A DNA stretch of 64,000 bases from Scenedesmus sp. ARA3. Taxonomy: Eukaryota; Chlorophyta; Chlorophyceae; Sphaeropleales; Scenedesmaceae. Made by a program: the position numbers and the translations under genes. The notes beneath the pieces are model-generated. The model worked only from the letters and a program-made list of their open reading frames with translations, was not told the origin of the DNA and ran no database searches. Location: assembly GCA_004335835.1 (NCBI GenBank), contig RWJK01001828.1, forward strand, positions 40,518-104,517, given 5' to 3'. Numbering within the stretch: position 1 is the first letter of the stretch; every line of letters starts with the position of its first letter. Shown here in pieces: positions 1-64,000 of the stretch.

Positions 1-3000
1 TGCACATGTTATAACAGTGTTACCGTGACAGTTACACAACATGTCATTCCAGGTGGCACCCGCTTTCGTGTGCTGTAGCGCGTTGTGCAAGTGACTAGTC
101 ATACGACAGAACAGAGAGACATATGCTTGAAAAGGAGCAAGGTATGCTGTGTCCAGCGCAGCAAGGCAGCCATGCAGCTGCCTCTGTAGAGACCAACTCT
201 GTATGTGGATACCCTACGTTCAGAGCACGGGCAGCAACGATCGCTGCTTTAGCCAGCCACCCTCAAACACAGCCACACATCAAGCACCTGCCAAGCTGCT
301 GTTTACCAGTGAGTGATCAGAGCAGGGCACAACAGCCAGCTGCACTGCAATGCGCTGCAACCCACCTGTGTGACCTCTGCTCCCTCGTGTGTTGTGGCAG
401 TCAGCCGCAGATTCACCTCCTGCAGCAATGCAAGCGGCGCTGGCCTGCCGTGCAGCTGTAGCGCCAGCTGCAGCAGCAGCGGCACGCTCTGGCCTGGCAG
501 CAGGGACTCCTGGTGGCAGAAGAGCTGCGCCTTCAGGGTGTACTGTTCTTGCAGGCGCCTGGCAAGGAATGGGGGAGCAATGGGCAAGCAATGGGCAAGC
601 GCTGGTTTACCGACGCTCGATGGTCGGACAATCTAGCAATGGTTGAGCAGTTTGCAAGCAGTGGTGAAGCAATCGTCAATCAGTACAAGCAGATGAGCTG
701 TTGTCTGACGGCCAGCAGGCAGGTACAAAAGAAATCATGCATGTGTTTTCCGCGGCACTTACTGGAACTCTGGGAACAGCACAATGCACTCCTTGCTGGG
801 ATCAGCAGCTGCCTGCAGCTGTGCCGCCACCACCAGCGGCGTCTGCTGCTCCTGCCTTGCATACGGCAGCAGCACCTCATGCTGCTGCCCTGCTGGCGAG
901 GGAGTATACTGCTTGCCCTCGCACCACACGCGCGCAACCTGCTGTGCGCATGAATAGCAGCGCAGTAGTAAAGTAAAGCCGCACATGTGTACAGTCTATG
1001 ATGCAACGCTCGGCAGCGCAGCAAATCCACGCAACAGACATGCCATGATGACAATGGGTAACAAGAACCATGTTTTACTCAACTGTTTGAAAATCCAAAA
1101 CCCACCTTAACAGGCCGCCAGTCCTCATCCAGCACTGTCAGCACCTGCCCAGCAGCAGTGGGCCGCTGCGTCAGCCGCAGGCAGCCTTTCTGGATGCGTG
1201 CCCTCACCACCTGGCCGTTGGCCACAGCCTCCACCAGCCACACACCAGGGGTGTTTGCAAGGCCCAGCGGGACGCTGTGGCGAGTCCTGCAGGCGCAGAT
1301 GACACAACTCAGCAGCTCAACTCCAAGTGAGTTGAGCGCCAAAACAACGATGCACAGGTGCATGTGATGGCAGCAGGAGCAACAGCACCACAAGCCATGC
1401 ATGCATTCAACCGAACCATGAAGAGCACACGCATCAATGGCAGCATGGCACAACTATAATATGCTCTTGAGTACAACATCTACATCTGCTTGACACAGGC
1501 CAATTGACTGGCCTTGAGGGTGTCGTGGATGCTGCACACCACTGGCAGCGCTTGCACAACAGGCACGGCCACGCAATCATTATCCACGCTCACCTGATGA
1601 TGGGGTCCTGTGGAGTCGGTAGTGCCAGCATGTTGTTGGGCACCAGGCACCAGGCCAGACAGTGTTGCTGTCACCCGTTCAAATGTCCAGTCACTCACAA
1701 TGGCTGGACCATGTAACAATTCCCTCTCACCTGATGATGGGGTCCTGTGGCGTTGTCAGTGCCAGCGTGGTGGTGGGAGCCAGGCCAGACAGCAGTGCTG
1801 TAACCTGTCTGCTTCTGAATGGGTTGAACAACGTCATCATCATTTGCTGTACATTAGGCTGTACCCCCTTACATGGTTCCAGGGACCACATGTGGCCACC
1901 TTATGGACGAGTCTCACCTGGTGATAGGGTCCTGTGGTGTTGTCAGTGCCAGGGTCTGTGAGGAGGTGAGGTCAGACAGCTCCAGCGCGGTGTCCACCAT
2001 CTTCATGACAAGTCTATGACAGTTGCTAAACCATGCAAGCGTGAACCTCACCTGATAATGGGGTCCTGTGGCGTCGTCAGTGCCAGCGTGGTGGTGGGAG
2101 CCAGGCCAGACAGCTGCAGTGCCAGGTCCACCATTGCTGTTTGGACTGCATCGACAGTTGGCTGGAACATGCAACTATACATGTCTACTCACCTGATGAC
2201 AGGGTCCTGTGGCGTTGTCAGTGCCAGCGTGGTGGTGGGAGCCAGGCCAGACAGCTCTAGGGCCAGGTCCACCTGCCTGCCCTCAGCGGTGTAGTAGTTC
2301 CAGGCGTTGACCTCATACACCTTGAGCAGCACACCCTGCAACAGAAGCAGCAGCAGCAGCAGCAGCTCAGCAGGTGCAAATGGACAGAGCACAGTAAGCG
2401 CAGCGTCTGCGGGCCGAGACCGTCAATCAGCTGGCCTTGTGCGCCCTGAGAGGCACGCCCTGTGGCGGCAGTGCAGCTTGTGCGCTATGTCGCGGGTGGG
2501 ACACACACCGTATGCAGGGTAGCCAGCACATGAAGCAGGGAAAGCTCAGCGTGCACAGCAAGCGGCGGAACTACAGACAGCAGCCAAACCACAACGAGAA
2601 GGGGTAGGTATCGGCAACGCAACTAAAACGCATCAGTACCTGCGGCCCCACATTCTTGGTGTCCAGGTGCAGGGTCACCTCTTCCTCAAGAGCGTAGCTG
2701 CTGCGGTTGTGCTGCGCAAAGCTGAGCTCTGTGCGGGCCGCAAGAGCTGCCACATCCTCATGCTTCTGGTACAGCCTGCAGGTGACAGTGCAGCCGGCAC
2801 AACCACGTCAGCGTGCTAGCTAGGGCCTCAAGCAATGCGCATGTCAGCGCCGTATGCTCTGGATTATTGCGTATGCAGAGTAAAAGCATCGTTGTGGCTG
2901 CTGCTGCCTGCGGGGCCGACGGCGACGTTGTTATGGCTCTAATTGTGATATGATGATGATGACCCCCACCCCGCGTCTCACCTGGACCAGGCAGCTGCAT

Positions 3001-9786: not shown

Positions 9787-11041
9787 TTACAAAGCCTTTG
9801 CAGTCAGCTTCACTGGCGCCGACTGCTTGGCCTTCAGTGCCTTGGCCTTCTCACTGGGCACGTGCACATCCCACACAATACCCAGCGCCTTGAGGGTGCA
9901 GATGAGGTACCAGGTGAGGTCGATCTCCCACCACTCAAGGCCGTGGCGGGCTGACTGTGGGAAGGCGTGGTGGCTGTTGTGCCAGCCCTCACCGAAGGAC
10001 ACAGCGGCCACCCACCAGCAGTTGGTGGACAGGTCTCCTGCAAATCGTGAGCGGCACAGCGAAGCACAGCAATGTGTTGAGCGGTAGACTCAGTGAACGG
10101 GGCAGGCAGACGGCAGCTACATGGCATGCAGCCACAACACCTCATGTTGCTGTAGTGATAGGTCTATTCCCAAAGTGATGTTTGCTCACCTGTCTCGTAG
10201 GGCTGGCGGCCCTAGACGTGTGCCGCGCTGTTCACGAGGAAGGTGGAGTGGCAGCCTGCCACCATGGGCACAGAAGCTCATGCCAGCAGTGTAAATTACC
10301 TTGCTATGACCATGAACTAACGCCCTCTCACCTGTCTCATAAGGCTGGCGGCCCCAGACGTGTGCCGCGCTGTTCACGAGGAAAGTTGAGTGCCATCCCG
10401 CCACCATGGGCACTGCGATGGTCCATGCCACTGCCTCCAGTCCGCCCAGGTAGGTGTAGGTGAGGTAGGGCTTGATGATAAACAGCCAGGGGAAGAAGAA
10501 CACCTCCATGAACCTGCGCGGAGGAAGACATATGGTTGCAAATTGTAAGCGGATGAAGTGTGCTTTTGTGTTTGGGACGAGAGGAGCAGCCAGGGGAAGA
10601 AGAACACATCCATGAGCCTGCGCGGTCGAAGAGAGATACTTAGTGTTGATTGTGTGTCGGTGTGTGGGGTGGGGAGTTACCAGGAGGGACTGAGCTGCTG
10701 AGATCAAGCAGCAGCAGCCTGTTGCGCAACGGGAACACCACATGCCTGTTGCCATACCGTGCGGCAGAACAGCCAGATCGATGTGCAGCACACGCACGCA
10801 CCTGTAGAACAGAACAGAACAGCCAGTCCATCTACAGTAACTAATATGTACTATTGCTCTCCACCCACAAGCACCTGTAGAAGAACTGGCTCTTGAGGTC
10901 CTCTGCGTTGGAGTAGTCCAGCATGGAGGCCTCAGTGCTGAACAGCCAGCCCATGTGGCTCCAGAAGAAGCCCTCATAGGGGGAGTGCGGGTCCAGGGGC
11001 GTGTCGCAGTGCAGGTGGTGGTAGCGGTGCGTGGACACCCT

Positions 11042-11136: not shown

Positions 11137-13639
11137 CGTTGAGTTCGGATCCAGGAACGCTACATATGTGCTGCTCAGTCAAGCAACTGCTCAGTATATG
11201 AGGAGCGTTGCGCAAGCGCTGCGGTTGACAGCGGCAGACAAGCAGCAGCAGCCCCAAGCCTTGCAGAAGCTTGTAGATCTGCCTCACTGCTTAGCAATGC
11301 ACGTGAGCTGCAGGCTGTGTTATGCTGTGCTTGTACTTAGTTTAGCCGCTGCTCACCACTCGATGGGGTCACCCTGGCCAGCCTGGCAGGCCAGGAAGGC
11401 ACACGTGTACTCAAACCACTTGGGGCACTTGAAGGACCTGCACACCGCAACACGTACACAATCTGTTGTGTTCTGTAACACGGTTGCATGGCAGGCGACG
11501 CACAAAAGCAACACACGCATGGAGCACTGCTGCTGCACTTGTGGTCAGATTGTTTGCCATGTGCAACCTGTGGCTGGTCGCACAACAAGCAGGGCAACCG
11601 TTTAGAAGTGGACACACCTGCTGCCTCCGCTGCTGCTGCTGCTGCACATTGGGTGTGTACCTGTATTTGAGCATCCTGTGGAAGCACAGCGTGATGCCAG
11701 CACTATGAGTGCTGCTACAGCTGCTTGCTGAGATCACTGCATTTGCTGCATCGCCTTGGCACGCACCTGTGTGTGAGCATCCTGTGGAAGCACAGCGTGA
11801 TGCCAAAGATGCCTGGGATGGTGTAGATGAGCCAGCCCAGGAAGGCGTTCTTCCAGGTGAACGTCCTGCATGGGGACACGTGAAAGATAATGATAAGGTT
11901 TTGCTGTTGCTTCGGCAATGTACAGCACAGACCAGCTACAGCGGACACAGAGGTAATGGCGAGATTGGTTGAGAGAATCAGGGGTTTGAGATGCTCGGAG
12001 GTGGCTGTGTCAGACTGTTTGGACATGCCATCTGCTGCTGCTGCTCAACCCGCACGTGCGGCAGCTGCTGTTACCTCCTTCGCACTCGCTTGCTGATGCT
12101 CTCGCCTCCCCTGCCACCGCTGCTGCTGGTCCTGCTGCTGCTGTTGCTGCTGATGCTGCTACCGCGACTGGCTCAACCATTGCTGCTACATGTCACCAAC
12201 GCACCTTGGCGCCACATACAGCGCAATGCCGTGCATTGCGGTGATCACGGTGAGGCGCATGAGGCATGTGACTGCGTTCTTGATGGTGGCGCCCTTCTTT
12301 GGGATCTCCTTGGTCTCCAGGTTGAGCAGCGGGCGCGGCTCTGCCTTTGCGTAGATGTCGCTGAAGGGGATCTTGTGCGCGCCCTCCACCTTGGCCTGTG
12401 TGCGATGATGCAGGTGCAGCACGCAAGCTGAATTAGTAATGAAATGATGATGATGCAGGCGTGATGCAGCCTCATCATGTGTCAGGCTGGGCGGGTGATG
12501 GCAGGCAGGCATGCAGCAGCTGACGGCAGGAAGCGCAGCTAGATGTCCTTGAAAAACAGTGCATGGCGCAGATTTCGCTGAAGGGGATCGTGTGGGCGGC
12601 CTCCACCTTGGCCTGTGTGTACCAGTGTGTGATGTGCAGGTGCAGGGAAGGAAGCAGCCGCACAAATGTCAGGCTGGACGGGTGATGGCAGGCAGGCATG
12701 CAGCAGCTGACGGCAGGAAGCGCAGCTAGATGTCCTTGGAAAATAGTGCATGGCGTAGATTTCGCTGAAGGAAATCTTGTGCGCGCCCTCCACCTTGGCC
12801 TGTGCGTGATGGTGCAGGTGCAGCACGCAAGCGAGGTGAGATCTTTATGTTATGGTATGGTAATATGTTGTTGCTGCAGCTTGATTGGTAGTGTATTGAT
12901 TATCCCTATTCCAGAGTAGAGGGAGAGGGGGGAGGGGCGGTGGGCGCCCTAGCGACAGCGACCTGGACCTCGGCCCTGCGGCGCGGCGCGCCGCGGCGTG
13001 GCGTGGCGGCGCGCTGTATGCGCAGCGCGGCGCGGCGTGGCGATGATGATGCAGGGAGGAGGCAGCCACATATGTGTCAGGCTGGGCGGATGATGGCAGG
13101 CAGGCATGCAGCAGCTGATGGCAGGAGGCGCAGCTAGATGTCATTAAAAATCAGTGCATGGCTTAGATGCCACTGAAGGGGATCTTGTGGGCGCCCTTCA
13201 CCTTGGCCTGTGTGTACCAGTGTGTGATATGCAGGTGCAGCGCAGGGGAGGATGCAGGGTGGAGGCTGTGTCAGGCTACGCGGGAGATGGCGGGCAGGCC
13301 TGCAGGTGCTGGCGGCAGCGCAGCTGCAGGCACGTATGAATTCACAGATTATGTTTGCATGTCCAGATGTGTATCCTGTCTCCCTCAGGTGGCTGGCGGC
13401 AATGTGGCCAGCAGCGCTGTGGGAGTGACTGCTGCCAGCATGAAGTGAGTGTCACTTCTAGTGCCAAGTGACTTGGCTGTGATGTAGAAAACTCTGCGCA
13501 CCTGCTCCTCCTTGGAGGGCTTGGCATATGGTGTGGCCAGGATCTCATAGTCCTTGCATCCCTTGAGGTTGTTGAACTGCTGATGGTACGAAGGCGCGCC
13601 AGCCTTCACCTTGCGCTCCCAGTTGCCCCTTACTGTCAT
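9787..13639 (-). CDS. Acyl-lipid/acyl-CoA delta-9-type fatty acid desaturase
   Basis: Introduces a double bond into an acyl chain; this is a membrane di-iron desaturase of the plant ADS/FAD5 family. The CDS is complement(9787-10037, 10332-10513, 10875-11039, 11357-11437, 11767-11865, 12205-12395, 13502-13639). These sum to 369 codons including TAA (368 aa), with every splice phase consistent. All three histidine boxes are present: HRMLTH, HRYHH in STHRYHHLHCDT, and HNSHH in GEGWHNSHHAF. Hydrophobic stretches include the segment around LGWLIYTIPGIFGITLCF. The ATG at 13639 is the first one in frame. No clear transit peptide follows it, so an upstream exon could exist. The substrate (plastid MGDG C16 or ER acyl-CoA) cannot be told from sequence alone. 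Introns carry many partial exon copies, and a (CTG)31 tract abuts the acceptor of exon 10875-11039. Confidence 0.93.
10199..10272 (-). repeat. Copy of the 3' edge of desaturase exon 10332-10513
   Basis: The exon end encoding NSAAHVWGRQPYETG and its CAG|GTGAG donor are repeated about 130 bp into the following intron. The copy is close to the original but loses the reading frame over the segment that should match VAGWHSTFLV. The donor at 10331/10332 joins in phase to the last exon, so it is taken as the real one. Confidence 0.85.
10585..10812 (-). repeat. Two exon-edge copies in desaturase intron 5
   Basis: Near 10589-10627 the acceptor side of exon 10332-10513 is repeated (GAAGAAGAACACATCCATGA against GAAGAAGAACACCTCCATGA). 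Near 10796-10812 the donor side of exon 10875-11039 is repeated (GCACCTGTAGAACA against GCACCTGTAGAAGA). One intron therefore holds copies from both flanking exons, each nearer to its source. Confidence 0.75.
11040..11134 (-). repeat. (CAG)31 tract, (CTG)n in sense, abutting a 3' splice site
   Basis: An uninterrupted trinucleotide tract of about 31 units. Read in the sense of the desaturase gene it is (CTG)n ending in CAG, and the exon encoding VSTHRYHH begins immediately after. The repeat therefore occupies the polypyrimidine-tract position of this acceptor. Confidence 0.9.
11652..11702 (-). repeat. Copy of the 3' edge of desaturase exon 11767-11865
   Basis: The exon end encoding ITLCFHRMLTHR (the first histidine box) is repeated about 110 bp into the next intron as ITLCFHRMLKYR, with a GTACAC donor in place of GTGCGT. 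Confidence 0.85.
12400..13340 (-). repeat. About 180-bp tandem array carrying copies of a desaturase exon acceptor edge
   Basis: In the intron upstream of exon 12205-12395, a unit with GATGGCAGGCAGGCATGCAG and GCGCAGCTAGATGTC recurs near 12490, 12685 and 13090, with a degraded copy near 13285. Three units carry a copy of the start of the exon (around 12560-12615, 12745-12805 and 13160-13215) that reads AKVEGAHKIPFS or a close variant after a CAG acceptor. Between them, 12950-13045 is an extremely GC-rich stretch of GGCGCGGCG motifs. Confidence 0.85.
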
Positions 13640-16356: not shown

Positions 16357-18028
16357 CAACCCAAGCCCAGGCGCCGCATCAACATAGCAGATGTGCCGCA
16401 GTTCCAGCTGCCGTCAAAAAGCAAGCAGCCAGCCAGCCCTGTTCACCAGCCTGCAGTAGACTGGCAGCAGATCGTGGAGCAGGTCAGGCGCAGCGGGCAG
16501 CTGGTGACTGGCGAGCAGATGCTCACTGACACCTTCAGGTGCGCTGCTGCAAGCAGGTCAGAATTTATGCATCCACATGCAATTTCTCTGTCCACCACCG
16601 CCACATAAAGTTGAAATGTGTGCTTACCAAGGTAACACATGCGCATGGCGCGGCGGGACGTTGCGCGGCGTGCACTGCATGATTTGAACATCCGCCTTGC
16701 AACGCCAGCTCCCACTGCTGCACACATGCACTCAAGCATGCACTGCATCCTTCCCCTTCACATCAGGACCACGCTCTTAGCAGCACACTGCGTCAACACA
16801 CTACAGTCACCAAGCCACCACCATCATCAACAGGTCTCCCTGCACAGCTGCTACGCTCAGCTCTTTGTCCAACTTGCAACAGATCTTTGTCCTCACATTG
16901 TGCTGGCTGCTGCTGCTTTTGCTGCTGTTGCAGGCGCAAGCACACCTACCTGCGCATCTCGCTCACGGAGCGCTGCAACCTGCGCTGCACCTACTGCATG
17001 CCCGCGGATGGCGTGGAGCTTACGCACTCGCAGGAGCTGCTGGCCCCCGCAGAGGTGGAGCGCCTGGTGAGCATGGGTGGTTGAAGTCCAATAGATGCCC
17101 TTGGACGTTCAATAGATGCCCTTGGACGTTCAATAGATGCCCTTGGACGTTCAATAGATGCCCTTGGACGTTCAATAGATGCCCTTGGACGTTCAATAGA
17201 TGCCCTTGGACGTTGGATTCACATGTAGTGGATGTGGTGTGGGCCCTTGTAGGGCCTGCTGTGGCCAGCAGAGGTGGAGCGCCTGCTGAGCAGCAGTGGT
17301 TGAACTTCACTAGATATATATTTCTAGGGTTGTACCCTTGGATGTACCCTAGATCCTGCGGCGAGCCTCTCAACTGACGGGACGGCTGCTGCTGCTGCTG
17401 CTGCTGTTGCTGCAGGCCCGGCTGTTTGTCAAGGCAGGTGTGCAGAAGATCCGCCTCACCGGCGGCGAGCCCACCGTGCGCAAAGACCTGCAGGAGATCG
17501 TGGCGCGCCTCAATACCCTAAAACCGCTGGGCCTGCAGACCATTGCAATGACCAGCAATGGCATTGCACTGGGCAGGCAGCTGCCAGGCCTAGTAGAAGC
17601 TGGCTTGAGTTTGAATGGGCTGAATATCAGCCTGGATAGCTTGAAAGCGGAGCGCTTTGAGCGCATGACACGGCGGCGGGGCCATGCGCGGGTGCTGCAG
17701 TCGATTCAGCAGGCAGTGGACATGGGCTTCGACCCTGTCAAGGTGAGGACGGTTCAAGCAACGACAAAGCAGCGTTTATATGTGACGAATATGTTGATAG
17801 TAGTGATGGAGTGTGGTGCTGGTACAGCAGGCAGTGGAGATGGGCTTCGACCCTGTCAAGGTGAGCGGGGTGTGCAGTCCGGGGGATGCTATGTTCAGTA
17901 GTCACAGGATAATGCTGATACAGCAGGCAGTGGATATCAGTCCGTTCCTGCAGCTGCTTACCCGATGAATTGTAGCTGCCTCATCAATGTGCCGGGGCGT
18001 CTTGGTCACGTCACCCTCAACCTCATAT

Positions 18029-18088
<60 letters not shown>

Positions 18089-18949: not shown

Positions 18950-20525
18950 CTCCCGTTGACTGACACGATGTAGCTGGACCGTGTTGGTTTGGGCCAGCAC
19001 GCTGCAACCACCTGCAGGGGCATGGTTTGCAAGCGATGGAAGTAGGCACGACTTGTGCTGCAAAGTAGCACCAGTATCCCAACTTAACTGTGTAGCACGT
19101 GCGGCAGTTGAATTAATGGTAGCCAGTGGCACAGCTGCCTGTCATGGAGGTGACACAGGACAGGCCCATGATCACGATTGGCGGCTCATTGTCATTGTTT
19201 GATTCGTAGGTTGATGGTTACGATGCAGCTTGAATCTGCGTGTTGGTTTGAGTCAGCATGCAGCAGAGATGCTTGGTGTGTGTATTGCTTCGGCTGTAGC
19301 AAGTGTCTGGCAGCTGGCACGTGTTGTGCAGTTGCTCGGCAGCGTTCCAAGGCAGCAGTTTGGCCAGTGCAGCAGCTGCATTGTGGTTGCCGCTGGCGCA
19401 GCTGCAGAAGATGAGTGCAGTCAGCTTTCAGGGCATGAAGATGTCACAGCCGCTGATGAACAGTCGCAACCAGCAGCGTTGTATAATATTTGAGGGTAGA
19501 GCGTGCTTGCTGTTGTTGTGCTACACAAGGGTGCTGCTTCGGGGTGAGACAGCCACTGGTCCGGGGTGCACATTCTGCTGCTGCGACTGCTGCACACAGC
19601 ATTGCTGCTAACCATTCTTTGTGTTGCGCCTAGTTGTACTGCATCATTACGACTTTGTGAGCTAGGTCTGTCTCACATCAATGCCAGGCGTGGGATCACG
19701 CACAACTGCAGATGATTGTGGTGGTACGCAGCCTGCCTGCCAGCGGCTGACAACTGTGTCTGCTGGCATTTACATAGTGAGGTTGCTGCCTGTAGTCAGG
19801 TGCAGCTGCAACAGTTGTGCGCCGTCTACGTGAGGGCAGCGATGGAATGCATTGCAGGAAGCCAACGAGCAGCTCATAGGAGGGCGCCGTGCTGCACACT
19901 TGTACAGCTGGTGGCAGCCAACCAGCCAGGCCATGGCCATGGCACTGCTGGAGTTCCATGTTCATGTTGTGCGAGAAGTGACGCATGTAAAAGGTTTTGT
20001 GTTTCCTTTGACCCGGTTTTGTTTGATAATTGGTTGATCTGACCAGGCGTGTGCTGATCGTTGGGATCTAACAAGCACCGCAGCTAAGGGTCCCCTAGGT
20101 GAGGTTGTTGGTGCGCGAGCAGGCGGCAACAGTGATAATAAGAAGTACAATGTACTGTTCCAACGTACTACGTATAGGCTACACTACTGCCGAACCTAGC
20201 GCCCAAAGTATGCATGAAAAGCCACTGGCGGCCAAGCTGTTTGGGCCACCCGCATTTCAAACCTGCTGAAAGCAGCTCTCCACTACAACATGGAGCCCTA
20301 CCAGTGGTACTAGCCCCTAGACATACGCAATGATAGTACTGATGACGTTACATTTTGCTACGTTGCATACTCCACTCAACCAATGGGTGGGATCCCAGTC
20401 AGGAGCCAACAAGACGCCCAAACGGGTGACACCATACGTACATAGTACGTAGTAAACAGAAGAACCAAATTGCGTTCACGCTTTGCCACCTGCAGCGCAA
20501 GCATTTGCCCCAATCACAACAGGGC
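18950..20525. other. Intergenic region after CNX2, with a decayed copy of its 3' end
   Basis: Downstream of the CNX2 stop, GACAGGCCCATGATCACGAT at about 19158 copies the last coding segment GAACAGGCCCATGATTACAA, and similarity continues into 3' flanking sequence to about 19270. The rest (19300-20525) has no recognisable gene. A candidate poly(A) signal for the minus-strand LRR gene is at 20348. Confidence 0.6.
20348..20352 (-). terminator. Candidate TGTAA poly(A) signal
   Basis: TTACA on the + strand (TGTAA in sense), about 175 bp after the proposed stop of the minus-strand LRR gene. TGTAA is the usual poly(A) signal of chlorophycean algae. A five-base match is weak on its own. Confidence 0.3.
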
Positions 20526-33897: not shown

Positions 33898-33941
33898 TAG
33901 CTGCAGCTGGAGTGTGATGCCTGCAGCTGCAGCAGATTCGT

Positions 33942-38999: not shown

Positions 39000-41809
39000 G
39001 CTCACCTGAGCTGACCACGATGTCGATGGCGTAGACCTCATTTGGCTCAAACTCAGCGTCCTCCACCTTGTGCTCAGGGGAGGGCTTGTTCAGGATGACC
39101 TGGCGGCAGCAGCAGCAGCGAGCAGCAGCAGCATGTGAAACAGAGCTTCCCTCATAACAGCAACAGCTGAGCATACGTTGTCAGCCGCTGCTCGGAGCTG
39201 CAACGAACGGGCTAGTGCTCATCTTTCACGACGTGGCAACGCGCTGCAAGCCATGCTGCTGTGCAGTACAGATCACAAGACAGTTGTCTGTCTCCGCGCG
39301 GTCCCTGGGATTGCGAGTTGTTTCTCACAGCAGCAGCTTTTCAATCCTGGCCTGCTGCGCACCTTGTTGCCGTCGATCACAAACTGCTTCATCTGGTGGC
39401 TCATCGATCAAGCATTCCTTCATGAAACATGCAATCGCATTAAAATGCATCTCTGCTGTGTCCCGGCCTGCGCCGCACCTTGTTGCCGTCGATCACAAAC
39501 TGCTTCATCTGGTGGCTCATCACGCCCTCCACCAGGTGCACGCCAAACGGCTCCACAGCAGCCGCCAGCTTGGGGGCCACGTCAGACACGCGCTTGCCTG
39601 CAGAGCACCAAAAACAACACAGATTGCAGAAATTATGCTTAGCAGGCAGGATGGATGCAGACGGCAGAACAACAATGCCAGCTGCCAGCTTGGGAGCCAC
39701 GTCAGACACACGCTTGCTGCAAGGAATCAGCACAGCCCAGAGGATACAACAGTCAGCATGCATGCCGGCAGACATGAAGCTTCCCGAACGTGTCACCTAA
39801 GTGCTACATCAGGCACGCGCTTGCCTGCAGGAACAGATCCCAGACAAAGGAGTATCGCTGGGCCCTGACACCTCCAGCTGCTGCGGGCAAACCGAAGGCC
39901 TCAAACTGCAACTCCGAATGCACACCGCCAGTACATCAACCACACCTGGTTTGACCAGGCAATGGCTGCGTGCTGGAAGACGGCAAGCCGGTGCCAAAAG
40001 AGTAATAACACGAACACAGCACAAAGTTATATCGCTATATAACGAAGACCACACACCTGGTTTGACCAGTCCAGTGGCTGAGTTGAAGGCTGTGCATGCC
40101 ACTCTTAGTACTTCACCACACTAGCAAGATACGTGTATATGGCATAATGCACATGTAGACGGACAAATGCACGCCAACAAACCGCACCTGGCTTGACCAG
40201 CCTGATGGCTGCGTTGAAGGCTGTGCGTGCCGCCTCCAGCAGGTCTGCCGCCTTTCCAGTGACTGGCGTGTCAAAGCTGGCCGCCACCAGCACCGTCTGC
40301 GCCTGCGTGGCGATGAAGCCGTCTATGTGGCAGCCCAGGTCGCTGCAGCAGCACACGCATGGGGAGATACAAAACATCAACGCTGGTGAAAGCATGCCAA
40401 AGAAAGATGGACAACGGAGCAGCAGAGGCAGGATCGATACATGTGTATGGGCTTGTCCTCCTCTGCGCTGGCATGAGGCGTTGGCAAAATGAGAGTCAGC
40501 AGCGCCCTGGATCACCCGCAGAGGCCAGCTGGTGGTGTTGTTCATGCAGCTCACAGGGTCACTCTCTGCTGCTAGTGACCGCAAATATATTCTTGAACAG
40601 CAACAGCCTGCCGCAAATCTCCTGCTGCTGCTGCTGCTTCTGCTGCTGCCAATTCTGCTGCTGAATATGGCGAGGCTGCGACACGCTGCTGCTGCTGCTG
40701 CCGCCGCCACTCACATCTTGACCAGGTCTCCATCCTTGATTGCCAGTGTGTTGTCAGCCAGTGGGCTGAAGTGGCCCACGATGCTGCAGGGGCAGTAGGG
40801 GCAGCAGGGGCAGGCGCGTATGCATTTGAGCTCAAAACCTTCCAACTAGTGCTGCTCAACTGTAGCACTGCATGAGGAGAGCTTCGTCAGGTGAACAAGA
40901 TGCAAGAGATAAAGCACACACACGGCACCAAATAGCTGTGGTTTGGCTGCCGGTCAACGAAATGCCAGTGGCCTGACACTGCTGCCTGCCAGCCTGGCCC
41001 TTGGCCTTGCTGCTGCTGCTGCTGCTGGCTCACCTGTTGGGTGACACGCAGGTTGGGAAGGCCACACCCTTCTCGATCTGCTTGCCCTTGAAGGACTTGG
41101 CGCACTCTCTGCAGCATGACGTCAAACGTGGCAGAATGTATCAGTATCAGCAGGTACTGGTGGTGCTGGCTGGCGGGGCAGCCTGCCGCTACGTGTGGTT
41201 GCTGCTCAGGGCTAACTAGTGCCAATCAGTCATCACAGTGCAGTGAAACTTTCTAAAAATGGCGGGTGATGATACAGCTGCTCATCTTCCAGTGATGATG
41301 GTTGCTGCATTCGAAACCACTGCAGCAGTAGCAGTAGCATGAGCAGTGCTGGCTGTAAGCAGCAGCTGCCTGCGCACGCACTTGTTGATCACGTCGTCGC
41401 CGATTTTGCAGAGGTCCACCACCTTAGCTCCATCCTTGCAGGCCTCAATCACAGCAGAAATGGCCTCTGCGGAGCAAACGCCGAACGCAGCTGTCATAAA
41501 CTGTGCACGTCAAACACAGCCAGGCTGCCTCCGCCAGTATCAGGCCATTGTAACTTTAGAAAACATCATCCTGATTCCGGCTTGCTGTTGTGGCACAGCA
41601 ATGAGGCTGCACACATCTCGAGAGTTGCGGCTAGTGTTGATGGCTACAAGCTCTTGCCCCGGGACGGCGCAGATCAATGCTACCGAGCTTATCTGTACAG
41701 CAGCTATATGCTTTGATAACTCACTGTTGCAGATCTCAGCGGCAGCCTTGTACTTGGTCACCACCTTGTCGTCTGAGAGATCAAGCTCCTGGTCCTCGTG
41801 CTCAGACAT
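37629..41809 (-). CDS. EBP1: ERBB3-binding protein 1 homologue (PA2G4 / EBP1)
   Basis: Inactive methionine-aminopeptidase-fold protein that binds ribosomes and rRNA and promotes growth in plants. The CDS is complement(37629-37814, 38239-38383, 38626-38773, 39006-39099, 39479-39597, 40188-40342, 40715-40783, 41034-41108, 41382-41466, 41725-41809), ten exons, 387 codons including TAG (386 aa; family about 390). It begins MSEHEDQELDLSDDKVVTKY and contains EKGVAFPTCVS, LVKIDLGCHIDGFIA, EGVMSHQMKQFVIDGNK, EVYAIDIVVSSGEGKPRMLD and GLVECLNHSLLHPYPVLHEK. It ends in a Lys-rich tail (KPRKSSKKKNG). Every splice phase agrees. Metal ligands of true MetAPs are partly replaced, as in other EBP1 proteins. 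At least five introns carry partial copies of flanking exon edges. Confidence 0.97.
37899..37952 (-). repeat. Copy of the acceptor edge of the last EBP1 exon
   Basis: TTGGGCATCAGCAGCACCGT and the following GATCTGCAA copy the start of exon 37629-37814 (peptide IKGTVLLMPNGSDKVT), with the acceptor, about 90 bp upstream in the intron. The flanking (CAG)n tract is shared. Confidence 0.9.
38134..38162 (-). repeat. Copy of the donor edge of EBP1 exon 38239-38383
   Basis: TGCGCCACCAGGTCTCCCG repeats the exon end encoding PGDLVAQ about 100 bp into the following intron. Confidence 0.85.
39352..39408 (-). repeat. Copy of the donor edge of EBP1 exon 39479-39597
   Basis: CACCTTGTTGCCGTCGATCA to GGTGGCTCATC is nearly identical to the exon end encoding MSHQMKQFVIDGNK, including the GTGCG donor context, 120 bp into the next intron. 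The 50-bp core is unchanged, which implies a recent event. Confidence 0.95.
39679..39834 (-). repeat. Two copies of the acceptor edge of EBP1 exon 39479-39597
   Basis: GCCAGCTTGGGAGCCACGTC at about 39682 and CATCAGGCACGCGCTTGCCT at about 39810 repeat the start of the exon (KRVSDVAPKLAA), each with an adjacent CTGCA acceptor, in the intron upstream. Confidence 0.85.
39944..40102 (-). repeat. Two copies of the donor edge of EBP1 exon 40188-40342
   Basis: ACACCTGGTTTGACCAG occurs at about 39945 and 40052, matching GCACCTGGCTTGACCAG at the real donor. The nearer copy continues through GTTGAAGGCTGTGCATGCC. Confidence 0.85.
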
Positions 41810-42541: not shown

Positions 42542-44059
42542 CTACTCCACCTCCTGCAGGTAGTCCTGCACCTCCGCTGCTGTCAGGATCTTGAACTTCT
42601 TGTCAGGCCCGATGATGCCCACCTGCAGCCACAGCAGCAGCAGCAGCAGCATGCAGCAGCGCACACGAGCGTTTATGCATCGAATGTGCAGGTAATCACC
42701 AGCATGTGTAGTACGGGCAACACTGCACGTGATGCACGGAGCAAAGGGCGACCCGCTGCCATGCACAGCCAGTGGTTTCAGCAACGCAATGCCGCACGTA
42801 GCCAAAGCATTGCCAACCTCAGTGTTGGAGCCCGCCACCGCCCCCTCACAGCCTTCTTTTAGTGTGAGCAGCGCCATGTGCACCGCGTCCTCCGACCAAT
42901 CCCAAAACACCAAAACCCTCCACCTCAACATGTAAGAGCAACTAATTTCCGTACCTCAATGTTGGAGCCCGCCACTTCCCCCTCGAAGCCCTCCTTGAGT
43001 GTCAGCAGCGCCGTGTGCTCGGCGTCCTCCAGCCAATACAAACCCTAAGAAACCCGTCCACCCTAAACCTACAAACAACAAAACCACGCACCTCGTTGTT
43101 GGAGCCCGCCACTGCGCCCTCGAAGCCCTCCGTCAGTGTCAGCAGCGACGTGTGCACCGCGTCCTCCAGCCAATCCAAACCCTAAACACCCGTCCTTCCT
43201 AAAACCTACAAACAACAAAACCACGCACCTCGATGTTGGAGCCGGCCACTGCGCCCTCAAAGCCCTCCTTCAGTGTCAGCAGCGCCATGCACGGCGTCCT
43301 CCAGGCCATCCAAAACACCAAAAACCTCAACGTCAACATTTAAGAGCAACCAAATTTTGCACCTCGATGTTAGAGCCCGCCACTGCTCCCTCAAAGCCCT
43401 CCTTGAGTGTCAGCAGCGCCGTGTGCACGGCGTCCTCCAGGCCCATCTCGCTGCTGTAGCGCTTCTCCAGGAAGGTCTTGGCGTTGGTCATGTTCTTGCC
43501 AATAGCGCTGGCCTGCATGACGTCAGGTAAGTTGAAATTGCAGAGGCAGCAGCGATGCAAGTTGCGGTGACAGAGTGGGCTGGACTGCACAGGTGGCTCA
43601 GGACCTTGCGCATGACAGTTCGCATGCACGGGCAAGGCAACCTCCGTGTACCAAGTCTATCACAGACAGCAGTTGCTGCACACACCGCTCGGCCCTGACC
43701 TGCCCTGCACCATCCCTTGATTGCAACAACACTAAACACCTCTGACTCCACGGCCCAAACTGGCCTGAGCCGATGCAAGATAGAAAGCATAAGCTTTGTG
43801 CAATCGTACCTGCCACGCAAAGTGGGAGCCGCCAGAGTCGATGTGGTACAGCTGCCGCTGTTGCTAGACCATAGTGCTAGCCATGCATGCTTTTCCATGC
43901 ACTTGCTCAACCACGCTTGTGCAATCGCACCTGCCACGCGAAGTAGGAGCCGCTGGGGTCGATCTGGTACAGCTGCGGCCCGTTGTCATCGTAGCCGGCC
44001 ATTAGCAGCGACACGCCAAACGGCCGCACACCGCCCGTCTCTGCAAAGCATGACAAGAT

Positions 44060-51718: not shown

Positions 51719-54286
51719 TCAATGATGCCGTCTGCCTGCTCCAGACTGCCATGATACTTTCCTGTTCGTCTGCAGCAGCAACACACAGTTGGAAGGACCT
51801 AGAAGCTCGTCCTTCCGCACTACCCTGCACTGCACAGGCACGCCCCGTGCTGCTGCTGCAGCTGGGCTCCCTGTGCTCACTCCTTGCTGCTGTTGCTGCT
51901 GCTGTTGATCAGCAGCATCTGCTGCATCACTGGCTGCTGCTTTGCTGCTTCTGCTGCTTACATGTTCTCCTGCTGTCAGCACCCTGCACTCTGCTCTAAC
52001 AAACTCGCCTTCCAGTAAGCCATAAGGAGGCCGCTTCAGCACCTGCAGCAGGCAGGCCCAAACAGCACGTACCACAGGCCAGTTTAGCCACAAGTTTGAT
52101 GCAGAGCAGACCGTGCTGTTGGCAAACACAAAGCACGCGCAAAAGGCCGCTGCCAAATAATTTCTGCCCAACGCCTGCTGCGCCAGCTGATTTCTTGCCA
52201 TAGTCAACCCACCTGATACACATCTTCTACTCTGCTGCCAGGCTTCACCAGCAGGCAGTCCCGCAGCACCCCAGCAGCCCCTCCTTGCGCTGCTCTCGCC
52301 TTCGCATCCACTCCCCACCCCAACGCAGCAGCAGAGCTGCTGCTGCTGCTGTGGCCCTTGCTCCTGCTGCTGCTGCCACCATGATGGTGGTGACCATGGT
52401 GTGAGGAACCCCCTCCTCCACCACCAGCAGCAGCACGCAAACTGACTGCAGCAAGCGCTGTGCAGCTCTCCCTATCAGCTATAGGGAAGCACCAGCGGGG
52501 CGGTTTCAGTGCTACTGCACATGTCAGCGCTGCAAGTACACCCGTACTGCCGTACGGCTGCAGTACGCTCTGTGTCACCTGCTGTACCGCTGCCTCACTG
52601 CTGCTGCTGCTGCCAGAAGGTGCTGCTGCAGCAGCAGCAGCGTCCTGGTAGGAAACCTGCCCTGCTCGTCGCAGCTGCTGCAGCTGTCGCTCAGCCGATG
52701 CGCTGACTGCCAGTGCTGCGTCATGCGGATATGCTGCAAGCACTGCACGGATGTGCGCTTGAGCACTCGGCAAGTCAGCCTGCAGTAGACATACATGACG
52801 GCACAGATCACTTTCTGACATAATAGACATTGTTTTCTTGTTGCGCCAGGCAGGACTACTGCTGCTGTTTCGCGCGAACTGCTGTCAGCACTGCCCACCC
52901 CAGCAAAATCCTGTCTCGCACAAAAAGGCTGCAGGCAAACATGCCGGCCAAGAAACTGTACCAATGCCGATCAAGCATACCCATTTGAATCAGCTGGAAT
53001 AACTTCCCCTTGCTGCTGCCGCTGCTGCCGCATGCCGCACCTTGTTCAATGCCAGCAGGATGGGGAAGCGTGCTGCCAGGAAGTGTGCCACCAGCCGATG
53101 CAGCTCCCACTCCCCCCAGCTGCCCAGGATGCTGCTGCTGCTGCTTGCGGGCAGGCCAGACTCCTTGGTGCCGCCCTGCAGCCCAGCATTCTGGTGCGCA
53201 GGAAAGTGCCAGGGCAGTGCATGTGTCGTTTCTATGTGGCCAGATATGGTGTGAAGGTCGCACCGGTGACGGGGGTTCTTGATGAGCAATAAGTGACGAT
53301 AATTAATTGACATATAAGCACTTGACAGTTAGGCTGCTTGCTTTTTGAAGTACGCCTTCCATAGCATGCAGTACGCACCAGCCAATCCCAGATCAGCCGC
53401 TGCGTCACACAACGCGTCTCACCCCTGCAGCCGCCACCTCAGCAGTCAAGTCCTCCAGCCGCACCCCCACAGCCCGCAGCACAGCAGCAACCAGCCCAGA
53501 GGGGGCATGGTAGCCACTGAACAGCCCAGGCAGCCGGGTGGGCCGCCGCAGCACGCCTGGCCACTTGGCACGTACATTATCGTACACCCAGCAATGCAGC
53601 TCCCGCCGCACCCAGCTGCAGGAGGACAGCAGCAAGGAGCGGCAGCAGCAGCAGCACAGCGTGTGTGAGAAAGCAGAGCTAGGGCGTTTATCTATAATGC
53701 TGCAGCACTGAGTATCTGATCAAGCCAGATGAGCTCGCTGCATGCCAGTCAGAGTGCTGCAACATACAAATGACAACTACACACAGCGAGATACCAGTGA
53801 GATACCAGTGAGAGCACATAGCAGACTACAGAACGCACAGCACTGCTGGGTGGCAGCAGCAGCAGCGGCAGCAGCAGAGCTGCAAGCACTCACAGCACCT
53901 CCTGGCGCGGGTCTGCGCCCTCCCCCGGTGCCGCCCCCGCACCCTCACTGTCAGTGGTGCCGCTGACATCCACCACGTGCACCAGCACGTCAGAGTCACA
54001 CAGGTCATTGAGGAAGGCATTGCCGCGACCCCGGCCCTTGTAGGCACCTACAGCAGTAGCAGCAGCAGCAGCATGTCAGCGGCACACATGTCATTGCACA
54101 CAAAGTGACACAACCACAGCCCTTGCGGCAGACAGGTTTGAAAAGATGGGCAGGGAACCACAGCACTGTCTGTGGTGCCGCTGACATCCACCATGTGCAC
54201 CAGCACGTCAGCGTCACACAGGTCGTTCAGGAAAGCGTTGCCGCGGCCTCGGCCCTTGTATGCACCTGCAGTCATGGTGTGAACAT

Positions 54287-54337
<51 letters not shown>

Positions 54338-56141
54338 CCAACAGCAGCAGCACGTCAGCATCACACAGTTCGTTCAAGAAAGCGTTGCCGAGGCCGCGGC
54401 CCTTGTAGGCACCTGAATCCAGCAAACAATTTCAGCACAACAGATAGGCAGCAGCAGCGCCATAAAGTCAGCGACACACATGCCGTAGCAACTGGCTTGC
54501 TGCACCAATGTCCCTTGCAGTACAGCCGGGCAAGCTCCAACAGCAGCAGCAGCAGCAGCCGTCAACAACACTGTGTGTACTCAGCAGGGCATCGCCATGG
54601 CAGTGGCCTGGCCTGATCTAAACGACTGCACGTGGCAACACAGCAGCCACATGTTACACACCTGGCACCAAGCCTGCCACATCCTTCACCACGACAGGCA
54701 CACGACGCCACAACAAGCTGCTGCTGCTGCTGCTGCTGCTGTTTGGCGCTACTTGCTGCTGGCCCCAACCGCAGTCCCTGACCAGCTGCTGCAGCGGTCC
54801 GATGTTGCTGAACTCTGGACTGATCTGGCTCAGATCAAAGCCTGCAGGCAGCAGTGGCAGCAGCAGCAAGATCAGGGCAAGGACAAATGTGCGTTGTGGA
54901 GGAAGCATCCAATTGCAGCAATCTTGCATGAGTTCCGGCAGAGAGAAATTGCTGCGGTCTGCGCTGAGCACATGTAAGTGCATGCACATACTTGCATTTG
55001 CGACACAGCCAGCAGCCAGACCAATCATCCCAACTGGACCCCTATCCAGGGCCATGTGCCGGCTGCGCTGCACCAGCAAGCATACAATGCACTCGGCTCA
55101 TGCACATGTAGCACAACTGCAGACACAAAACCCATCACCCTGCACCTACCCAGGGCATAGCCATGAGCCGGCTGTGCTGTGTCAGGCCCCAGCCCCAGCA
55201 GGGGTGCAGGGTCTGGCAGCACAATGTGGCCCCTGCCAACGTTTGGTGTGATGGTGGTGAAGGGGAATGGGGCCTCGCGCGCTGCATCCTCCTCCCGTGA
55301 GGGATCTGCAGGCAGAAGGCCAGTTGCAGCAGAGCAGCCGATGCAGCAGCAGCGGTGCATGAGCATCAGCAGAGGTGAAGAAGGGTGCTTCATCCTTGTT
55401 GTGCGGAAGGATCTGCAGACATGTGATGGGCAGAGGCAGCAGCGAATCTGGCAGCACAATGTGGCGGCGCCCGATGTTGGGTGTGATGGTGGTGAATGGG
55501 AATGGGGCCTCGCGCGCTGCATCCTCTTCTCTTGAGGGATCTGCGGTTACAGCAGAGCAGCCAATCGCCGTCAGCGATGCAGCAGCAGATGGGCATGAAC
55601 ACGGCCAACGGGGAGGCTGTTGTGGTCTCGGGGTGGGAATTTGCCAGCAATCACGCCCTTATGTTGCACAGGTGTGCACAGAAGCTGCAAAGACGCTTGC
55701 TGTTGTTTTGCGCAAACAATGGAGGGTTCAGCCTCAGGCTTTCAGGCAGGACAAATGAGGCCCTGGCGATATGGTCTACATCACAATGAGACGAACCGGC
55801 TTGTGCACCGGCCGGAATGTCAACAAAAGCAGTGATGTGCTGTGTTATGCTATGCTGTTTTGTGCAAGTGGCAACAACACAGCCCCTCAGTACTCCTCAC
55901 CTATCACTGCGTTGTAGAATGTTGACTTGCCGGCTGATGGCTTGCCCACCAGCCCCACAGTGTAGTCCCACCTGCCTCGGCTGCTCTCCAAACCCCCAAA
56001 CCCCAACCCTCCTGCTGCTGCTGCTGCTGGTGATGCACTCGCTGCTGCTGCTGCTGCTGCTGGTGGTGGTGGTGTCTGGCCGTCCTGCTCCTCTCCTGCA
56101 GCCCCAAAAGGACTGTCATCATCTGCAACTGCCCAGGCTTT
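51719..56141 (-). CDS. OBG-family GTPase of the YGR210c / archaeal type, with TGS-like C-terminus
   Basis: Exons placed: complement(51719-52052, 52213-52779, 53041-53175, 53423-53615, 53894-54047, 54662-54841, 55146-55305, 55901-56141). One small exon between 54842 and 55145 is unresolved, because the phases do not join without it. All GTPase motifs are present: G1 [10 protein letters not shown]2 in [12 protein letters not shown]3 [18 protein letters not shown]4 [22 protein letters not shown] and [19 protein letters not shown] match yeast YGR210c and archaeal homologues rather than OLA1, which has NxxE at G4. Related proteins bind ribosomes; the precise role is unknown. The C-terminal ~110 aa after QVLKRPPYG contain a Gln/Ser-rich insert. 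The first exon has no in-frame ATG, so the protein must begin upstream, possibly inside the RWD gene. Confidence 0.85.
54166..54413 (-). repeat. Two partial copies of the GTPase G3 exon
   Basis: The acceptor half of exon 53894-54047 ([21 protein letters not shown]) recurs at 54166-54267, extending to VSGTTDS, and at 54350-54413, both upstream in the same intron and both with an acceptor. A (CAG)n tract separates them (54296-54340). Confidence 0.92.
55374..55543 (-). repeat. Near-complete duplicate of the GTPase G2 exon, plus a decayed copy
   Basis: 55445-55543 repeats the exon 55146-55305 peptide from [18 protein letters not shown] to HIVLPD, with an acceptor and an open frame. Between it and the real exon, 55374-55415 is a decayed copy of the exon start. 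The upstream copy lacks a clear donor, so the exon at 55146-55305 is taken as the functional one. Confidence 0.9.
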
Positions 56142-60906
<4,765 letters not shown>

Positions 60907-62367: not shown

Positions 62368-64000
62368 GCCCCGCACTGCTGCCGTCAGGCTGCTGCTGAC
62401 ACCTGCCTGCCCATTTATGTGGGCTTTGACCCAACAGCAGACAGCCTGCACCTAGGTGAGCAGCAGCAGCAGCAACGGGTGACGGCGGCAGCTGGAACAG
62501 GAGCAGCATAGCTGTCAGCCTGCAATCCTTTGAACAGCAACAGCAGCAGCAAGCCCAGCTCCGCGGCAAGCCATGCAGCGCAAGCTTTTACAGCAGTAGT
62601 CATCATGCCGTCAGCAGCACCTAGTCTTCACGTTGGCAGTACAAGCATCAACAGCTGATCACCGCCAAACTGCAGCTGCAATCCTTCTTGCAGCATCATT
62701 GCACAGTGTGTTCAACAGCCTACAGCTGCACATGTGTCAAACTACAGTCAGCCTTTACACAAGACATAGCCCTGCTTTGTGCATCAGCAGATACAAGACT
62801 TGCAAACACCATGAAACAGCCTAACCGCGTTCCATTTTCCCGCCAATGCAGGCAACCTGCTAGGCATAATTGTGCTGGCCTGGGCAGGCGCCTGCGGCCA
62901 CACCTGCAACACAACTGATTTCAAACCCCAAACCCTCTAGCAAAACCCTGTATTTCGTGTTTCTGCCGCACCACAGGCAACCTGCTGGGCATAATTGTGC
63001 TGGCCTGGGCTGGCGCCTGCGGCCACACCTGCAACACAAATGCTTTCAAACCCCAAACCCTGTAGTAAAACCCTGTATTTCGTGTTTCTGCCGCACCACA
63101 GGCAACCTGCTGGGCATCATCGTGCTGGCCTGGGCCGGTGCCTGCGGCCACCCACCTATCGCGCTGTGTGGCGGCGCCACGGGCCGTGTGGGTGACCCCA
63201 GCGGCCGCAGCAGCGAGCGGCCTGTGCTGAGCGAGGCGGAGATCCAGCGCAACATTGATGGTAGGTGGTGGCTGCTGGATTTTAGTGTGTAAAAGGGCTG
63301 TTCTTGGAGTCACACATCATGTAGAGCGTGCGGTGTGAGTGCTGGGCGAGGCGGAGATCCAATGTAACAATTATGGTGAGGCTGTTGCATGGGTGATTGG
63401 ACAGCCGTTTGAGGGTGGGCTGTGTGGGAGTTGCAGCAGCGAGCACCCTGTGCTGAGTGAGGCGGAGATGCAGCGCAACATCGATGGTGAGGGGGTGGCT
63501 GCTGTGTTAACAATGAGTTGAGGTTATGTCAACTAGTGTTATGTGTGTGAGCTAATGTGTGTATGTTGTGGTTGTATCATGACTGGCTCGTGTGCTGAGC
63601 GCGGCAGAGATGCAAGGAAGCCTGAAGGGTATTTGTAGCAGTGGCATGTCGGCTGAATGCGAGTGTTGCACACGAGCAAATGCCCATCTACTTGTACTGC
63701 AAAACCTGCCGCTGGCGCTGCTCTTGCACCACCGGTCTGCACCTGCTTTTCAATGCATAGCCATCGCCGGCACGCTGCGGACCATCCTTTGGGGTGTTCC
63801 GTTGTGCAGTGTAGCAGAGCTCATGTGATCATTACACAACATTTGCACATCTACTTGTGCGACCCAGCCAATAATGAGCGCTGCTGCTGCTGCTGCTGCC
63901 GGTGTGGGCTGCACGCACGCCTTGCTGCTGCTGCTGCTGCTGCCGGTGTGGGCTGCACACACGCCTTGCTGCTGCTGCTGCTGCTGCCGGTGTGGGCTGC
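61471..64000 (+). CDS. Tyrosyl-tRNA synthetase, organelle (bacterial) type, 5' part
   Basis: Charges tRNA-Tyr; a class I synthetase of the bacterial/organellar kind. Exons placed: 61471-61574 (MLVHRLISCRAMSK, Arg/Ser-rich transit-peptide-like), 61808-62039, 62389-62455 and 63102-63260; the rest is off the window. Phases agree. After a Gln/Ala-rich linker come NLVTLLRSRGLLQDVTSEDLEK, PIYVGFDPTADSLHLGN (HIGH motif as HLGN), then HPPIALCGGATGRVGDPSGRSSER and LSEAEIQRNIDG. The KMSKS loop and anticodon-binding domain are not in view. The presequence suggests import into chloroplast and/or mitochondria. Introns 3 and 4 are filled with exon-edge copies. Confidence 0.94.
62851..63101 (+). repeat. Two tandem copies (125-126 bp unit) of the acceptor edge of TyrRS exon 4
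   Basis: GCAACCTGCTGGGCATAATT to GCGGCCACACCTGCAACACAA starts at 62851 and 62977, with the real exon at 63102. Each is preceded by a CAG acceptor; the second copy and the exon share the upstream TTCGTGTTTCTGCCGCACCA. After GACATC-type divergence the copies end in ACACCTGCAAC where the exon reads ACCCACCTATCG. Confidence 0.95.
63337..63620 (+). repeat. Three copies of the donor edge of TyrRS exon 4
   Basis: The exon end encoding LSEAEIQRNIDG with its donor recurs near 63337-63380, 63435-63492 (most complete, from the codons for SSERPVLSEAE) and 63587-63620 (decayed). The first two keep GATGGTGAG or TATGGTGAG donors. Confidence 0.9.
63883..64000 (+). repeat. Tandem (CTG)n-GCCGGTGTGGGCTGC repeat at the right edge
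   Basis: CTGCTGCCGGTGTGGGCTGC followed by ACGCACGCCTTG or ACACACGCCTTG repeats about every 51 bp, with three units visible and the last cut by the window edge. It lies in an intron of the TyrRS gene, and may precede the next exon. Confidence 0.85.

What the first reader, a model, noticed from the sequence alone, without database searches (positions are those of the whole stretch)
1..64000. Introns built from tandem copies of neighbouring exon edges
In at least seven genes (A2M-like, desaturase, CNX2, EBP1, PSMA2, FSH-RWD/GTPase, TyrRS, and probably PP2C) introns carry one to six decayed copies of the adjacent exon edge, each with its own splice site. Donor-edge copies lie just downstream of their exon and acceptor-edge copies just upstream, as expected for tandem duplications that span an exon-intron junction. 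Copies range from near-identical to barely recognisable, so the process is continuing. It could be a main route of intron growth here and a large reservoir of alternative 5' and 3' splice sites. A simpler reading is that tandem duplications arise everywhere and only those spanning junctions survive selection.
Basis: partly seen in the sequence, partly recalled or inferred. Interest (0 to 1): 0.88.

Follow-up and report, generated by a model that had tools for sequence, protein, structure and literature searches.

The report
Introns padded with exon-edge copies
In this green alga's genome many introns contain old local copies of the end of the neighbouring exon, which makes the introns longer and leaves spare splice sites; the copies look like leftovers of ordinary short tandem duplications that did no harm, but some are better preserved than that simple story predicts.

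Summary
Real, and not limited to the window. The genome is Tetradesmus/Scenedesmus (EBP1 differs from Tetradesmus obliquus at 1 of 386 residues). In 302 kb (window plus 39 loci) there are 172 non-redundant local repeat pairs; 83 join an exon edge to its adjoining intron, against 24.8 ± 4.3 for random placement (maximum 38 of 1000). They touch 81 of 570 predicted junctions and 70 of 270 complete introns, which are longer (median 414 against 263 bp, introns under 1.5 kb). Most indels in exon-copy alignments break the frame (77 of 90). Copies also lie beyond stop codons (6 of 31 edges; 6 of 2000 random placements reach this), so the cause is probably not splicing itself. Best reading: short tandem duplications survive where they straddle the border of coding sequence, and selection keeps one copy recognisable. 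This does not explain everything: similarity tends to stop at the splice motif (25 of 46 end 3-8 nt into the intron, 10% of random placements), and in 8 of 11 youngest pairs the rest of the unit is too diverged. Local gene conversion is a candidate, unproven. Junctions are predicted; no RNA, related genome or second assembly was available.

The parts
1589..2255 (-). A2M-like gene (name unverified): array of copies of a donor-side exon edge (exon about 2193-2335) lying downstream in the intron
   Evidence: self-alignment, 5 alignments; sequence. No Pfam hit for the predicted protein
10185..10271 (-). desaturase: copy of the donor edge 10327-10413 (exon 10332-10513), 91% identical, offset 142
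   Evidence: PF00487
10587..10632 (-). desaturase: copy of the acceptor edge 10483-10528 of the same exon, 91%, offset 104
11659..11699 (-). desaturase: copy of donor edge 11765-11805, 95%, offset 106
12349..13215 (-). desaturase: acceptor edge of exon 12205-12395 followed upstream by several decayed copies (nearest at 12566-12619, 91%)
17268..17315 (+). CNX2: copy of donor edge 17049-17096 (junction after 17066), 85%, offset 219
17825..17865 (+). CNX2: copy of donor edge 17707-17747 (junction after 17742), 98%, offset 118; a truncated third copy at 17913-17937; filler fails the clock test
19150..19186 (+). CNX2: copy of coding bases 18911-18947 placed beyond the stop codon, 86%
33766..33941 (-). 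PP2C: two decayed copies of the coding 3' end lying beyond the predicted stop codon (a stop-edge case)
37896..37950 (-). EBP1: copy of acceptor edge 37766-37820, 95%, offset 130
38135..38159 (-). EBP1: copy of donor edge 38234-38258, 96%, offset 99 (GT reads AT in the copy)
39345..39405 (-). EBP1: copy of donor edge 39461-39521, 95% (43 of 43 exon bases identical), offset 116
39679..39721 (-). EBP1: copy of acceptor edge 39559-39602, 91%; cluster extends to 39830
40054..40100 (-). EBP1: copy of donor edge 40185-40231, 85%; further copy at 39941-39971
42816..43443 (-). PSMA2: 4.6 units of about 137 bp, each roughly the exon 3' edge plus intron start; the upstream-most unit joins the true exon (by comparison with the protein family), the rest lie in the intron
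   Evidence: TRF; PF00227; relatives listed are mostly 235 aa, without the repeats. The gene model calls some units exons
43796..43858 (-). PSMA2: copy of donor edge 43917-43979, 87%, offset 121
53946..54415 (-). Obg-like GTPase: near-complete exon (about 100 bp) with further copies at 54164-54267 and 54336-54415; the gene model calls 54167-54265 an exon too
   Evidence: PF08438
55476..55541 (-). Obg-like GTPase: copy of acceptor edge 55241-55306, 92%, offset 235
56544..56935 (-). acceptor edge of exon 56255-56588 in a roughly 103-128-bp array
57294..57807 (-). acceptor edge of exon 57154-57333 in a roughly 90-106-bp array; units in 57508-57807 match at 98%
62849..63151 (+). TyrRS: acceptor-edge array, 125-bp unit, 2.4 copies, 94%; the last copy is the true exon (from 63102, read by hand)
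   Evidence: PF00579
63207..63504 (+). TyrRS: donor edge (exon end 63260, read by hand) with two further copies downstream

Best explanation
Short tandem duplications (offsets mostly 87-248 bp within the 40-300 searched, median about 125) arise throughout this genome. Inside coding sequence they are removed by selection. Where the unit spans the border of coding sequence (an exon-intron junction, or a stop codon) the gene still works, because the outer donor, the inner acceptor or the first stop codon is used; the duplicate becomes intron or 3' flank and lengthens it. The spare copy then decays largely as noncoding DNA while the functional copy is held by selection, so these pairs stay recognisable longer than duplications with two free copies, and similarity fades first outside the constrained part. 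In some pairs the exon-edge copy is better preserved than this clock allows, so occasional re-copying of the exon edge onto the spare copy (local gene conversion) or direct short copying probably adds to it. Shown: the copies, their excess and direction, mostly frame-breaking decay, stop-edge cases. Inferred: which splice site is used, the duplication mechanism, the removal inside coding sequence, the re-copying.
For: 83 of 172 pairs at junctions against 24.8 expected; 83 against 4 for direction; similar offsets at junctions and elsewhere (median 125 and 128); 70 of 270 introns affected and, under 1.5 kb, longer. Filler of the unit similar at p<0.05 in 41 of 82 pairs, and fully so in the young arrays of TyrRS and PSMA2. 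77 of 90 indels break the frame (noncoding pairs 38 of 43). Stop edges 6 of 31, reached by 6 of 2000 random placements, plus PP2C. EBP1 of T. obliquus matches the model without copies at 385 of 386 residues; PSMA2 relatives are mostly 235 aa, without repeats. A published table gives T. obliquus a mean intron of 462 bp against 230-302 bp in four other green algae (PMC5966456, passages).
Against: Excess at junctions is about twice what I estimate from noncoding density and longer visibility (own estimate: about 22 expected, 35-44 after a 1.6-2x visibility correction, 83 seen). In the youngest class (<4% exon divergence) 8 of 11 fillers are too diverged even at the upper bound; overall 10 of 53 fail strictly and 29 of 53 by point estimate. 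Synonymous share of exon-copy differences is 0.53-0.56, above 0.43 expected for a freely drifting copy without mutation bias (0.48-0.52 with 2-5x GC-to-AT bias). Start-codon edges show no significant excess (2 of 24; 497 of 2000 placements reach it), though a copy before the start would be expected to be tolerated too.
Confidence: 0.6

Rival explanations
1. Exon-anchored homogenisation: old junction duplications whose exon part and splice motif are repeatedly overwritten from the functional exon by local gene conversion, so copies persist while fillers decay to nothing.
For: Identity profile for the 18 pairs >=95%: 0.95-0.98 in the exon, 0.97 and 0.92 over the first four intron bases, 0.69 at bases 4-6, 0.53 at 6-8, then a tail above the null. 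25 of 46 pairs >=90% end 3-8 nt into the intron, 10% in random placements. 8 of 11 youngest pairs fail the clock test.
Against: Conversion should also homogenise fillers while they are still similar; no direct tract evidence; the high synonymous share is not predicted; older pairs mostly fit without it at the upper bound.
Confidence: 0.25
2. Direct short copying: a piece of exon edge plus splice motif is copied by template switching or templated end-joining into the intron next to an unrelated spacer, with no tandem duplication of the spacer.
For: Of 18 pairs >=95%, 10 show no significant filler similarity and 7 score below the null mean; three spacers searched have no source elsewhere in the genome.
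Against: Does not explain why the block ends at the splice motif or why coding ends at stop codons behave alike; several spacers are homologous; spacer sources could be lost or unassembled.
Confidence: 0.1
3. The copies are functional alternative exon ends kept by selection.
For: Third codon positions differ most (0.171 against 0.072 and 0.055); splice dinucleotides kept in 41 of 46 high-identity copies.
Against: 77 of 90 indels break the frame; 27 of 83 offsets are multiples of three, as by chance; the T. obliquus EBP1 and the PSMA2 relatives do not contain the copies.
Confidence: 0.04
4. Assembly artefact.
For: One pair flanks a 50-N gap (L039) and is probably a joining error.
Against: Copies span 70-100% identity with indels and are arranged by gene anatomy; pairs spanning N were excluded there.
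Confidence: 0.01

Closest known systems
[quoted passage not shown] ATP2A1; potato RdRp, Ma et al. 2016)
   Same: Tandem duplication involving coding DNA tolerated because splicing removes the extra sequence (PMC4974935, abstract and passages)
   Different: There a new intron is created; here existing introns appear to grow at their ends, at 81 of 570 sampled junctions
Novel intron positions by exon duplication or intron sliding in Drosophila (Lehmann et al. 2010)
   Same: Regional duplication of coding DNA with a proto-splice site (PMC2891723, passages)
   Different: 5 of 31 positions attributed to duplication there, without surviving sequence similarity; here many recognisable copies inside existing introns
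Small tandem duplications from break repair (CST-Pol alpha; Schimmel et al. 2021)
   Same: A possible source of short tandem duplications (PMC8355091, abstract and passages)
   Different: Studied in animal cells; says nothing about exon edges in the passages seen
Introner elements (recalled)
   Same: Intron-building process in algae
   Different: The three spacers tested are single-copy, with no shared family

Membership tests
Junction-spanning tandem duplication | Copies lie on the intron side of the duplicated edge | tested here: met
   83 pairs intron side, 4 exon side only; null 24.8 and 16.1
Junction-spanning tandem duplication | The whole unit, filler included, is duplicated | tested here: inconclusive
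   Filler similar at p<0.05 in 41 of 82 pairs; 10 of 53 fail the clock test strictly, 29 of 53 by point estimate
Junction-spanning tandem duplication | Same unit-size spectrum as duplications elsewhere | tested here: met
   Median offsets 125 and 128 bp, both within the 40-300 searched
Rogers-type intron gain | A duplicated AGGT supplies both splice sites of a new intron | not tested
   Intron positions in relatives were not available
Tandem or mutually exclusive exons | Copies keep the reading frame | tested here: not met
   77 of 90 indels not multiples of three; offsets by remainder 27/29/27. True of the set; single loci such as 54167-54265 may differ
Introner elements | Spacers belong to a repeated family | tested here: not met
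   3 of 3 spacers searched are single-copy in 87 Mb
Gene conversion | Conversion tracts between copies | not testable with these tools
   No population or strain DNA available
Used alternative splice sites | Transcripts using copied sites | not testable with these tools
   No RNA reads available

The most novel reading that the evidence does not exclude
Exon ends act as anchors of concerted evolution: spare exon-edge copies in introns are repeatedly re-templated from the constrained exon, so that intron DNA carries self-renewing cryptic splice sites and grows by accretion at exon edges across the genome.
Probability: 0.25. Interest if true: 0.8.

Novelty: new variant of a known kind. Interest (0 to 1): 0.6.

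Why it matters
How introns lengthen without transposons is poorly documented (recalled). Here a mutational process and its selective filter can be read directly: 81 of 570 sampled junctions carry a copy, and affected introns under 1.5 kb are about 150 bp longer in the median. It would also supply natural tests of how the spliceosome picks between near-identical sites about 100 bp apart, and the stop-codon cases suggest that the filter is coding constraint rather than splicing.

Tried and rejected
Splicing-coupled copying (U1 or R-loop): suggested by the sharp end at the splice motif, but stop-codon edges also have copies. Spacer as inserted element or introner: three spacers single-copy. Coding constraint on copies: rejected on frame and indels, though the synonymous share is somewhat high and unexplained. 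First self-alignments used heavy low-complexity masking and made some pairs look shorter than they are (L014:1674, L023:7700); extensions were redone without masking, while the pair set itself still rests on the masked search and so misses cases such as PP2C. The first gene model was over-permissive; the second had a wrong rule for minus-strand start codons (it entered the counts). Fixed; the main counts are. with the faulty version gave 82 of 173 junction pairs (null 24.8). (expected synonymous shares, noncoding indels) is cited from the faulty version. No related alga's DNA was available.

Papers: passages of PMC4974935, PMC5966456, PMC12899622, PMC2891723 and PMC8355091 were seen; all others only as search listings. 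That I know of no report of this pattern rests on the listings alone.

Full report
What was examined. The window is C1417:40518-104517 of an 87.27-Mb assembly in 1567 contigs. Its EBP1 protein, as predicted here, differs from a Tetradesmus obliquus protein at 1 of 386 residues, so the organism is Tetradesmus/Scenedesmus (Sphaeropleales). I added 20 stretches of up to 10 kb from contigs at regular numbers and 20 loci of about 3 kb around an arbitrary 11-mer, one of which (L020) was dropped because it overlaps another: 301,755 bp in 40 sequences.

Gene models. No annotation was available, so I wrote an HMM gene finder, seeded it with five CNX2 exons and one TyrRS exon read by eye, and trained it on the sample. 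A mistake in the minus-strand start rule was fixed; the final model has 52 genes without internal stops. Its EBP1 has the length of the T. obliquus protein. Pfam matches desaturase, CNX2, PP2C, PSMA2, an Obg-like GTPase, an LHC protein (L029), RPN2 (L023), FSH1, TyrRS and EBP1; the A2M-like protein has no match. For CNX2, PSMA2 and the GTPase I left out copy segments that the model had called as exons before the scan, and TyrRS was read by hand. The model calls some copies as exons (11 of 83 junction pairs), merges neighbouring genes at 42.5-60.3 kb and misses TyrRS; the counts are not corrected for this.

The copies. Local direct repeats are abundant: 298 alignments under 500 bp apart, against 2 inverted and 0 in the reversed control. 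After reduction to nearest non-redundant pairs (score >=40, offset 40-300, no N) there are 172: 83 junction pairs with the partner on the intron side, 38 intron-only, 36 intergenic, 15 other exonic. Random placement of the same pairs gives 24.8 +/- 4.3 junction pairs (maximum 38 of 1000). The window alone gives 20 of 31 (null 5.0, maximum 12 of 300) and the other loci 63 of 141 (null 19.7, maximum 32 of 300), so the signal does not depend on the window that raised the question. Donor 44, acceptor 39. 81 of 570 junctions and 70 of 270 complete introns are affected; among 263 introns under 1.5 kb the medians are 414 (70 introns) and 263 bp (p = 1.6e-6; all). 21 of 40 sequences hold at least one junction pair. 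The length difference is expected if copies add DNA, but longer introns also offer more room for copies to be found. By eye, several pairs labelled intergenic carry exon-like motifs, so the noncoding count is probably too high.

Decay. Differences between exon edge and copy: 211 synonymous, 164 not; rates by codon position 0.072, 0.055, 0.171 (83 pairs). With a freely drifting copy and a fully constrained exon the synonymous share should be about 0.43 (up to 0.52 with a fivefold GC-to-AT bias); 0.53 to 0.56 is seen, and nonsynonymous changes show no such bias in wholly intronic copies at >=85% (32 against 30). I cannot explain this excess. Indels mostly break the frame (77 of 90) and offsets show no preference for multiples of three, so the copies as a set are not coding alternatives. 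Splice dinucleotides survive in 41 of 46 copies at >=90% and in 19 of 37 below.

Where similarity stops. For the 18 pairs at >=95% identity, match rates are 0.95-0.98 in the exon, 0.97 and 0.92 over the first four intron bases, 0.69 at bases 4-6 and 0.53 at 6-8, with a tail above the null. Of 46 pairs at >=90%, 25 end 3 to 8 nt into the intron, against 10% of 1569 random placements that touch a junction. A clock test compared the filler with what the exon divergence allows (ratio 1.57, my assumption), on 54 of the 83 pairs; the others were dropped for length differences, short exon parts or short fillers. Among 11 pairs under 4% exon divergence, 8 fillers are too diverged even at the upper 97.5% bound; 1 of 17 at 4-8%, 0 of 15 at 8-13%, 1 of 10 at 13-30%; by point estimate 10, 11, 7 and 1 (one row lies outside these classes). 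So duplication plus constraint can cover most pairs at the upper bound, but not the youngest class.

Not only splicing. Coding 3' ends also have copies beyond the stop codon: 6 of 31 stop edges; random placement gives 1.8 on average and reaches 6 in 6 of 2000 trials. Start edges show 2 of 24, which is not significant (497 of 2000). PP2C is a further stop-edge case that my masking had hidden. This argues against a splicing-coupled mechanism and for a filter set by coding constraint, on small numbers.

Sources of the spacers. Three spacers of high-identity pairs were searched singly in the genome, one together with its adjoining copy; apart from themselves and, for that copy, its own exon edge, nothing matched. 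They are not a repeat family.

Expected numbers. Taking the density of noncoding pairs (74 in 227.5 kb) and the median unit, about 22 junction pairs are expected; one constrained copy lengthens visibility perhaps 1.6 to 2 times, giving 35 to 44. The observed 83 leaves a factor of about two, which longer persistence (conversion), a higher duplication rate near transcribed exons, or annotation errors could fill. This is an estimate, not a test.

Comparison with the literature. Intron gain by tandem duplication is known from single cases (PMC4974935; PMC2891723). T. obliquus has longer introns (mean 462 bp) than R. subcapitata, M. neglectum, C. zofingiensis and C. reinhardtii (230-302 bp) in a published table (PMC5966456, passages), which fits but does not prove growth by this route. 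I found no paper describing systematic exon-edge copies within introns in the listings.

Verdict. Real, spread over the sampled genome and strongly biased to the borders of coding sequence. Best read as neutral short tandem duplication filtered by selection, with an unexplained extra preservation of some exon-edge copies. New variant of a known kind; interest 0.6.

Noticed in passing
window 17089-17214: A perfect six-copy 21-bp minisatellite inside a CNX2 intron, next to the decayed donor-edge copy.
   Followed up: no
window 18030-18192 and throughout: Long (CTG/GCA)n runs are common, some directly upstream of acceptor sites (for example CNX2), so the acceptor tract there is a CTG repeat.
   Followed up: partly
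L039 about 7689-7819: A 50-N gap lies between two identical 40-bp stretches, probably a scaffold-joining error; a similar 50-N gap lies in the CTG run at window 18089-18138.
   Followed up: partly
window 6585-6625 and 27405-27445: By eye, sequences of the type T-run, GTTACC, G-run occur in opposite orientation and may be ends of a transposable element; not analysed.
   Followed up: no
window 28957-30459: An ORF built of about 129-bp (43-residue) repeats, armadillo-like by eye: tandem duplication kept in frame within coding sequence.
   Followed up: no
window 18451-18486 and 18695-18730: An interior piece of CNX2 exon 18610-18949 (not its edge) has an intronic copy upstream, 89% identical.
   Followed up: no
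L023: The RPN2 gene (26S proteasome) region carries nine repeat clusters in 10 kb, one of the densest loci seen.
   Followed up: partly
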